DNA of 34,975 nucleotides. Origin: Sphaerochaetaceae bacterium (GTDB taxonomy: Bacteria > Spirochaetota > Spirochaetia > Sphaerochaetales > Sphaerochaetaceae). The DNA lies in the NCBI GenBank assembly GCA_028691695.1, contig JAQUYU010000006.1, forward strand, positions 1-34,975. The letters are read 5' to 3'. A program made the translations under genes and the position numbers. Shown piece by piece: positions 6,118 through 7,026 of this stretch (its first letter is position 1; every line of letters begins with the position of its first letter). The notes under the pieces are model-generated. The model did not search any database, was not told where the DNA came from, and saw only the letters and a list, made by a program, of their open reading frames with translations.

Positions 6118-6366
6118 TCACAGCTTCTTGATGACATCCTCTGAAAGACCGGTGAGTGCACTGATCTTCTCAATCGGGACATTCAAGCCCTGGAGACCTT
6201 TAGCCATTCTCATGCGCTCTTCCTGCCGGCCTTCGGCTCTGCCCTCGGCTCTGCCTTCGGCTCTGCCCTCGGCTCTGCCCTCGACTCTGCCCTCGGCTCT
6301 GCCCTCGACTCTGCCCTCGACTCTATTCTTATAGCCGACGGATCTGATTTTCTCTTCCAGTATCAT
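6118..6366 (-). CDS. Candidate internally translated C-terminal small Rpn protein (82 aa, RpnS-like)
   Basis: In-frame ATG at 6366 (MILEEKIRSVGYKNRVEGR...) preceded by AGGAGG (6378-6373) with 6-nt spacing inside the long Rpn ORF. Confidence 0.55.
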   Translation of the reverse strand: MILEEKIRSVGYKNRVEGRVEGRAEGRVEGRAEGRAEGRAEGRAEGRQEERMRMAKGLQGLNVPIEKISALTGLSEDVIKKL

Positions 6367-7026
6367 GTAACCCCTCCTGAATTCCTCATCCTTCTTGGCA
6401 TCTGATACAGCACGATCAATTTCTTTCACCAGTTCGCTTTTCTTCTCTTCCGGATAATGACCGGCATCATTCATGTACTCCAGAAGCACTTTCAGTTTAT
6501 CCCCAATATCTCCGTTTTGTCCAGTTGTATTGAAGAACACCTGATTTGTGCCATCATCATACTTGACATCAGGAGATTCCGAACATGAATAATTGAAACT
6601 GTATTTGAAGCAGCCCTTACCGAAAGGATCGAACTTGCATATGAAAATCAGGTAGCTCTGCCTTAGGTTTCCAAAAGGCTCTCCGCGCCCAAGCTGGTTT
6701 GAATCCATGCTTGCCTGATACAGCCTTGCCCTCTTCAGAAGGAACGGTTGGGTTTCAGCTTGCATCTCAACATCGAAAATAGTATTGCCATCATCAAGGA
6801 AAACATCAAAGCGCACCCCACGACGGCCAAACGGCCTTCCGTATGACTTCTGAACCGTTGCATTGGCATAGCTGCGAATCTTGATCCTGTCGATCTTCAA
6901 TTCCGGAAGAAGGCACTGTATCATCTTGAAGCAGATATCCTCATCGCTCATAACATAGGAGAACATCAGATCATCGGTGACATCAAGATCAAGGAATGCA
7001 GATTCAATCGTTTCTTTTCTGTTCAA
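6118..7026 (-). CDS. Rpn-family recombination-promoting nuclease / putative transposase (PD-(D/E)XK), long form
   Basis: N-terminal DLMFSYVMSDEDICFKMIQCLLPEL and catalytic RFDVFLDDGNTIFDVEMQ; near-perfect SD AAAGGGGAGGTGATGA immediately precedes TTG (7026-7024), so TTG is the favoured start rather than the upstream ATG at 7053. Confidence 0.88.
   Translation of the reverse strand: MNRKETIESAFLDLDVTDDLMFSYVMSDEDICFKMIQCLLPELKIDRIKIRSYANATVQKSYGRPFGRRGVRFDVFLDDGNTIFDVEMQAETQPFLLKRARLYQASMDSNQLGRGEPFGNLRQSYLIFICKFDPFGKGCFKYSFNYSCSESPDVKYDDGTNQVFFNTTGQNGDIGDKLKVLLEYMNDAGHYPEEKKSELVKEIDRAVSDAKKDEEFRRGYMILEEKIRSVGYKNRVEGRVEGRAEGRVEGRAEGRAEGRAEGRAEGRQEERMRMAKGLQGLNVPIEKISALTGLSEDVIKKL
6231..6326 (-). 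repeat. 8 x 12-bp tandem repeat encoding (V/A)EGR
   Basis: Plus-strand units c(t/c)tcg(g/a)ctctgc repeated eight times in frame; protein VEGRVEGRAEGRVEGRAEGRAEGRAEGRAEGR. Confidence 0.95.

What the first reader, a model, noticed from the sequence alone, without database searches (positions are those of the whole stretch)
6118..6378. Gene-within-gene in the Rpn nuclease: strong internal Shine-Dalgarno upstream of a separately translatable 82-aa C-terminal protein
Seen directly: inside the Rpn ORF, in frame, the minus strand reads ...TTC AGGAGG GGTTAC ATG ATA CTG GAA GAG (AGGAGG at 6378-6373, ATG at 6366). This is a better SD than many genes in the window possess. It would initiate MILEEKIRSVGYKNR-(V/A EGR)x8-QEERMRMAKGLQGLNVPIEKISALTGLSEDVIKKL. 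Established knowledge: in E. coli, Rpn proteins have been reported as phage-defence toxins whose activity is blocked by a small C-terminal form (RpnS) translated from within the same gene. The layout here is the same, in what looks like a spirochaete. Inference: the locus encodes a self-contained toxin (RpnL, PD-(D/E)XK) and antitoxin (RpnS).
Basis: partly seen in the sequence, partly recalled or inferred. Interest (0 to 1): 0.9.

Follow-up and report, generated by a model that had tools for sequence, protein, structure and literature searches.

The report
Rpn toxin gene with nested antitoxin
A spirochaete gene for a DNA-cutting, probably anti-phage protein contains a second ribosome start site that would make only the protein's tail, the part known in E. 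coli to act as the antidote, and this site is kept in well over a hundred related genes, so it is very probably real although the system itself is already known.

Summary
It is not chance. Among 1,355 in-frame internal ATGs in 183 ORFs of this genome, only three have an SD this strong, and two of the three lie in the genome's two rpn genes. A strong SD+ATG upstream of the four-residue repeats occurs in about 90% of non-redundant homologue clusters from spirochaetes and Clostridia, against 8-14% in control regions of the same genes. In homologues carrying the R-x-x-[YFV]-M motif, the Arg codon supplying the SD is AGG in 23 of 25 clusters, against 12 of 112 at other conserved arginines (p about 3e-15): selection on nucleotides beyond the protein. 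The 82-aa product matches the E. coli RpnA-S crystal structure (7th0) by profile and predicted fold. The nuclease motif is intact (D74, E87, Q89). Best explanation: an RpnL toxin / RpnS intragenic antitoxin module as reported by Zhong et al. 2023, a new member of a known kind. Toxicity, neutralisation and phage defence are inferred, not shown. The likely RpnL start is TTG 7026, not ATG 7053.

The parts
6118..7026 (-). rpnL: Rpn-family PD-(D/E)XK nuclease, 302 aa from TTG 7026 (the ORF is open back to ATG 7053)
   Evidence: TIGR01784 E=5.6e-29, PF12784 E=7.1e-10; start choice from SD energy and homologue N-termini
7029..7038 (-). RBS of rpnL: GGAGGTGATG, 7-nt spacer between GGAGG and TTG 7026
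6760..6807 (-). catalytic motif region, codons for D74 (6807-6805), E87 (6768-6766), Q89 (6762-6760)
   Evidence: D74 and E87 invariant, Q89 at least 90% in 24 homologues; all three invariant in 12 closer ones
6373..6378 (-). internal Shine-Dalgarno AGGAGG, spelled by the codons of R217-R218
   Evidence: conservation
6118..6366 (-). rpnS: in-frame C-terminal product, ATG 6366, 82 aa
   Evidence: matches RpnA-S 7th0
6226..6321 (-). eight 12-bp units coding (V/A)EGR, starting at residue 16 of RpnS
6121..6225 (-). C-terminal small-helix (HTH-like) module QEERMRMAKGLQGLNVPIEKISALTGLSEDVIKKL
   Evidence: profile match to 7th0; predicted helices after one long helix

Best explanation
The gene encodes two proteins in one frame. 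RpnL (from TTG 7026) is a PD-(D/E)XK DNA nuclease that harms the cell when free. RpnS (from ATG 6366, with its own strong SD) is the C-terminal oligomerisation module alone: a long helix carrying the four-residue repeats plus two short helices. RpnS binds the same module in RpnL and keeps the nuclease inactive, with repeat number and tail sequence setting partner specificity. Release during infection would let RpnL cut DNA. Shown here: intact nuclease motif, an internal start under nucleotide-level selection, homology of the tail to RpnS, and repeat hypervariability. Inferred from Zhong et al. 2023: actual initiation, toxicity, neutralisation, dimer interface and phage defence.
For: Exact internal SD+ATG. 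Top three of 1,355 internal ATGs in the genome, together with the other rpn gene. In 51 spirochaete clusters 90% have a C-terminal SD+ATG at E<=-6 against 14% and 12% in control regions, and observed SDs are stronger than synonymous shuffles (p=4e-7; controls not significant). In 40 clusters from genome contigs, mostly Clostridia, 88% against 10% and 8%, p=2e-11. The Arg codon of R-x-x-[YFV]-M is AGG in 54/57 genes (23/25 clusters) against 28/226 (12/112) at three other conserved arginines, and 17-20% of all arginines. L130 has GTG in place of ATG behind TGGAGG. The repeats begin 15 residues after the Met, inside the 8-20 range of Zhong et al.. The profile of the short form matches 7th0 at E=1.6e-7, the best natural protein, and its predicted fold has 7th0 as top hit (prob 0.96, rmsd 0.8 A over 38 columns). 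In E. coli RpnA the mutated RBS/start residues are K240, E241 and M244: the same codon offsets (-4, -3, 0) as R217, R218, M221 here.
Against: No expression or activity data for this organism. A strong SD+ATG need not be used. For the window gene alone the synonymous-shuffle test is only p=0.06-0.07; the case rests on the family. The P values treat related genes as independent apart from clustering. One homologue (L006) has no in-frame ATG in the tested region. No defence genes sit next to rpn here (neighbours are ssb and an amino-acid kinase) and PADLOC does not call it.
Confidence: 0.85

Rival explanations
1. The SD-like sequence is a by-product of the protein motif (W/F-R-R/x-x-Y-M or K-E-G-x-x-x-M); no separate protein is made.
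For: The amino-acid sequence alone makes SD-like strings likely: synonymous shuffles keep a mean best energy of about -6 to -7 in the C-terminal region against about -2 to -3 in controls.
Against: Codon choice at the motif arginine is nearly always AGG while other conserved arginines are mixed; observed SDs exceed shuffles only in this region. The window gene has TTC instead of TGG, which would lose TGGAGG, yet AGG AGG restores a perfect SD; the same-genus remnant has CAGTTCAGGAGT...ATG.
Confidence: 0.06
2. The internal start is used, but the short protein is a structural subunit or co-factor of the nuclease (as Cas11d is for Cas10d) rather than an inhibitor.
For: The same module is present in both forms and is an oligomerisation domain in RpnA; nothing here measures inhibition.
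Against: In E. coli RpnS blocks RpnL growth inhibition, SOS induction and DNA cleavage; homologous module and same gene layout here.
Confidence: 0.06
3. The SD-like sequence acts as a pause or frameshift signal during RpnL synthesis at the domain boundary.
For: It lies at the start of the long helix (residues 214-280; M221) in the predicted model.
Against: A pause signal would not need a start codon at a fixed distance, yet ATG (or GTG in L130) follows in nearly all homologues; no alternative-frame product was looked for systematically.
Confidence: 0.03

Closest known systems
E. coli RpnA/B/C/E and plasmid RpnP2 RpnL-RpnS intragenic toxin-antitoxin (Zhong et al. 2023, PMC10327210)
   Same: PDDEXK_2/TIGR01784 nuclease, internal RBS and start at the same codon offsets as RpnA (K240 E241 ... 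M244), four-residue repeats shortly after the internal Met, three-helix C-terminal module homologous to RpnA-S (7th0).
   Different: Different phylum; nuclease and S sequences only distantly similar; SD is AGG AGG (R-R) rather than K-E codons; E. coli genes have an internal transcription start, here only a chance-level promoter-like match was found.
C. difficile rpn cloned in E. coli (same paper)
   Same: Internal RBS/start shown to make an RpnS; many of our closest homologues are clostridial.
   Different: Not compared directly by sequence here.
Cas10d/Cas11d internal start (type I-D CRISPR)
   Same: Gene-within-gene, in-frame C-terminal product.
   Different: Complex subunit rather than inhibitor; unrelated proteins (cited in PMC10327210).

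Membership tests
Rpn family (TIGR01784 / PF12784 / COG5464) | Family profile match above curated cut-off | tested here: met
   TIGR01784 101.8 bits (cut-off 52.1); PF12784 39.4 bits (cut-off 27.4)
Rpn family (TIGR01784 / PF12784 / COG5464) | PD-(D/E)XK catalytic residues intact | tested here: met
   D74, E87, Q89 conserved in the alignment; assignment of them as catalytic is from the family motif
RpnL-RpnS intragenic TA | Internal in-frame RBS and start before the C-terminal domain, selected as such | tested here: met
RpnL-RpnS intragenic TA | Four-residue repeats 8-20 residues after the internal Met, variable in number | tested here: met
   Repeats start at residue 16; repeat number differs in 80 of 107 homologue pairs with at least 70% identical nuclease domains. 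Within-species variation of this very gene could not be tested.
RpnL-RpnS intragenic TA | C-terminal domain homologous to RpnS | tested here: met
   7th0 by profile and by fold
RpnL-RpnS intragenic TA | Short protein is produced | not testable with these tools
   needs ribosome profiling, tagging or proteomics
RpnL-RpnS intragenic TA | Long form toxic, short form neutralises | not testable with these tools
   needs expression experiments
RpnL-RpnS intragenic TA | Anti-phage activity | not testable with these tools
   no defence island around rpn, which neither supports nor excludes it
RpnL-RpnS intragenic TA | Internal promoter giving a short transcript (E. coli) | tested here: inconclusive
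   one 9/12 sigma-70-like match at 6523-6494; two matches in the region against 1.1 expected

The most novel reading that the evidence does not exclude
In this spirochaete family single genomes keep several rpn genes whose nuclease parts are homogenised or freshly duplicated (99.5-100% identical DNA from about 70 bp upstream to the internal start) while the RpnS parts differ in repeat number and tail. This would give sets of orthogonal, non-cross-neutralising toxin-antitoxin pairs, with the internal start marking the edge of the diversifying module.
Probability: 0.3. Interest if true: 0.6.

Novelty: new member of a known kind. Interest (0 to 1): 0.38.

Why it matters
Internal translation of rpn genes had been shown in E. 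coli and for one C. difficile gene. The codon-level test here shows that the internal ribosome site itself is under selection across spirochaetes and Clostridia, which makes the nested antitoxin a general property of Rpn genes rather than an enterobacterial one and gives a cheap way to annotate RpnS starts. Annotation pipelines will miss every one of these small proteins.

Tried and rejected
Standalone rpnS genes in relatives: the short C-terminal hits turned out to be rpn genes cut by contig ends. Synonymous shuffles on the window gene alone: suggestive only (p=0.06-0.07). Viral contigs with the single protein: no relative; phage records: four distant partial matches, not followed. Structure search with the RpnL model: only a weak match to McrC (6hz4, E=9e-4, TM 0.18), not used. 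Internal promoter: chance level. Two other strong internal SDs in the genome background (in L117 and L103) lie in ORFs that look like a membrane protein and a cysteine desulfurase and were taken as chance (names by eye).

Full report
What is there. On the minus strand the Rpn ORF reads ...GAG GAA TTC AGG AGG GGT TAC ATG ATA CTG GAA GAG..., with AGGAGG at 6378-6373 and ATG at 6366, in frame, giving MILEEKIRSVGYKNR-(V/A EGR)x8-QEERMRMAKGLQGLNVPIEKISALTGLSEDVIKKL, 82 aa. The repeat is the only tandem array found in the window. The whole protein matches TIGR01784 (E=5.6e-29) and PF12784 (7.1e-10). The mechanical ORF starts at ATG 7053, but TTG 7026 has a near-perfect SD (GGAGGTGAT, duplex energy -12.4 against -5.7) and fits the homologues, so RpnL is probably 302 aa.

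Chance. I scored every in-frame internal ATG, at least 40 codons from either end, in 183 ORFs of this genome (window plus 20 contigs) by the duplex energy of the upstream stretch with the 16S tail. Of 1,355, three reach -10.8 or better: this one, the ATG at codon 215 of the genome's second rpn gene (contig 8, -12.1), and one in an ORF that looks like a membrane protein. Only 12% of ORF starts reach that value. Both rpn genes of the genome being among the top three is hard to ascribe to chance.

Conservation beyond codon constraint. I collected 80 full-length or near-full-length Rpn genes from spirochaete genomes and 78 from genome contigs, mostly Clostridia. With a strict spacing window, an in-frame ATG with SD energy of -6 or better lies 35-125 codons before the stop in 90% of 51 spirochaete clusters and 88% of 40 clusters of the other set; in two control regions of the same genes the figures are 14% and 12%, and 10% and 8%. 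Observed SDs are stronger than after shuffling synonymous codons within each gene (Wilcoxon p=4e-7 and 2e-11 on clusters), while the control regions show no difference. The sharpest test uses homologues with R-x-x-[YFV]-M, where the Arg codon supplies AGG of the SD: AGG is used in 54 of 57 genes (23 of 25 clusters), against 28 of 226 (12 of 112) at three other conserved arginines of the same proteins (Fisher p=3e-33; 3e-15 on clusters) and 17-20% of all arginines. In the spirochaete set it is 9 of 9 against 47 of 126 (p=2e-4). Clusters remain related, so the P values are indicative, but the contrast is large. In the window gene the usual TGG-AGG has become TTC-AGG-AGG, which keeps a perfect SD through the next codon, and the decayed copy in the same genus keeps TTC-AGG-AGT...ATG. 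The homologue L130 has GTG in place of ATG behind TGG-AGG.

Identity of the short protein. A profile of 27 such C-terminal products matches the crystallised E. coli RpnA-S (7th0) at E=1.6e-7, the best natural protein in the PDB; the higher-scoring entry is labelled CAP REPEAT, apparently a designed repeat protein. The whole-protein profile also finds 7th0 (4.6e-6). The predicted model of the 82 residues is a long helix and two short ones (mean pLDDT 70, about 90 in the C-terminal half), and its top fold match is 7th0 (probability 0.96, rmsd 0.8 A over 38 columns, 37% identity; Foldseek E=1.0 because the piece is small). In the RpnL model (mean pLDDT 84) the internal Met, residue 221, lies near the start of the long helix 214-280. 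D74 and E87 are invariant and Q89 nearly so.

How it works. Zhong et al. 2023 (PMC10327210) showed that RpnS is translated from within E. coli rpn genes, binds RpnL, blocks its toxicity, SOS induction and DNA cleavage, that repeat number sets specificity, and that plasmid RpnP2 defends against some T-even phages; a C. difficile gene also made RpnS in E. coli. In RpnA the internal RBS and start fall on K240, E241 and M244; here on R217, R218 and M221, the same codon offsets. I infer the same mechanism here. Production, toxicity, neutralisation and defence were not tested.

Repeat and tail variation. Among 107 homologue pairs with nuclease domains at least 70% identical, 80 differ in repeat count. 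In three spirochaete genomes, two rpn copies on different contigs have nuclease-part DNA 99.5-100% identical while the RpnS part is 81-96% identical with gaps; in two of them the 5' flank is identical or nearly so for about 70 bp, and none is similar downstream. These are metagenome-type assemblies, so this needs long reads.

Surroundings. ssb lies upstream and an amino-acid kinase downstream; in the two other genomes of the genus the best ssb and kinase matches lie on different contigs. No defence gene is adjacent. The window genome is 86% complete in 177 contigs.

Verdict. Observation confirmed, interpretation supported by sequence evidence, function inferred. New member of a known kind; the added value is the evidence of selection on the internal ribosome site across two phyla.

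Noticed in passing
G000:C8 (L001:1112-2080): The genome's second rpn gene has an even stronger internal SD (AAGGAGGACACAATG) that would start a 109-aa C-terminal protein; its repeats begin much further from that Met than in the window gene.
   Followed up: partly
window 7049-7078, minus strand: A 12-pair hairpin (TGCATGCTCGGG-GTCAAG-CCTGAGCATGCA) between ssb and the rpnL RBS, unique in the genome and without a T tail; it may limit read-through or RpnL translation.
   Followed up: partly
L039/L080 (G131), L098/L099 (G127), L019/L051 (G060): Within-genome rpn copies with nuclease-part DNA 99.5-100% identical but different repeat number and tail.
   Followed up: partly
G001:C106 (L219): A decayed rpn copy in the same genus: matches skip query residues 56-107, which hold the catalytic motif, while the short C-terminal frame stays open with AGGAG...ATG. 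It may be an antitoxin-only remnant or an assembly effect.
   Followed up: partly
window 27286-28383: Patatin-like phospholipase matching PADLOC effector phospholipases (E=8.5e-52), followed by an unidentified 131-aa ORF; whether it is a CBASS-type effector was not tested.
   Followed up: no
window 33425-34834: SbcB-like exonuclease ORF that also matches a PADLOC DRT-associated model (E=2.2e-54); probably ordinary exonuclease I.
   Followed up: no
MT835536.1:35505-36173: An unannotated faecal phage record encodes an Rpn nuclease-domain relative (32% identity over 73% of the query).
   Followed up: no
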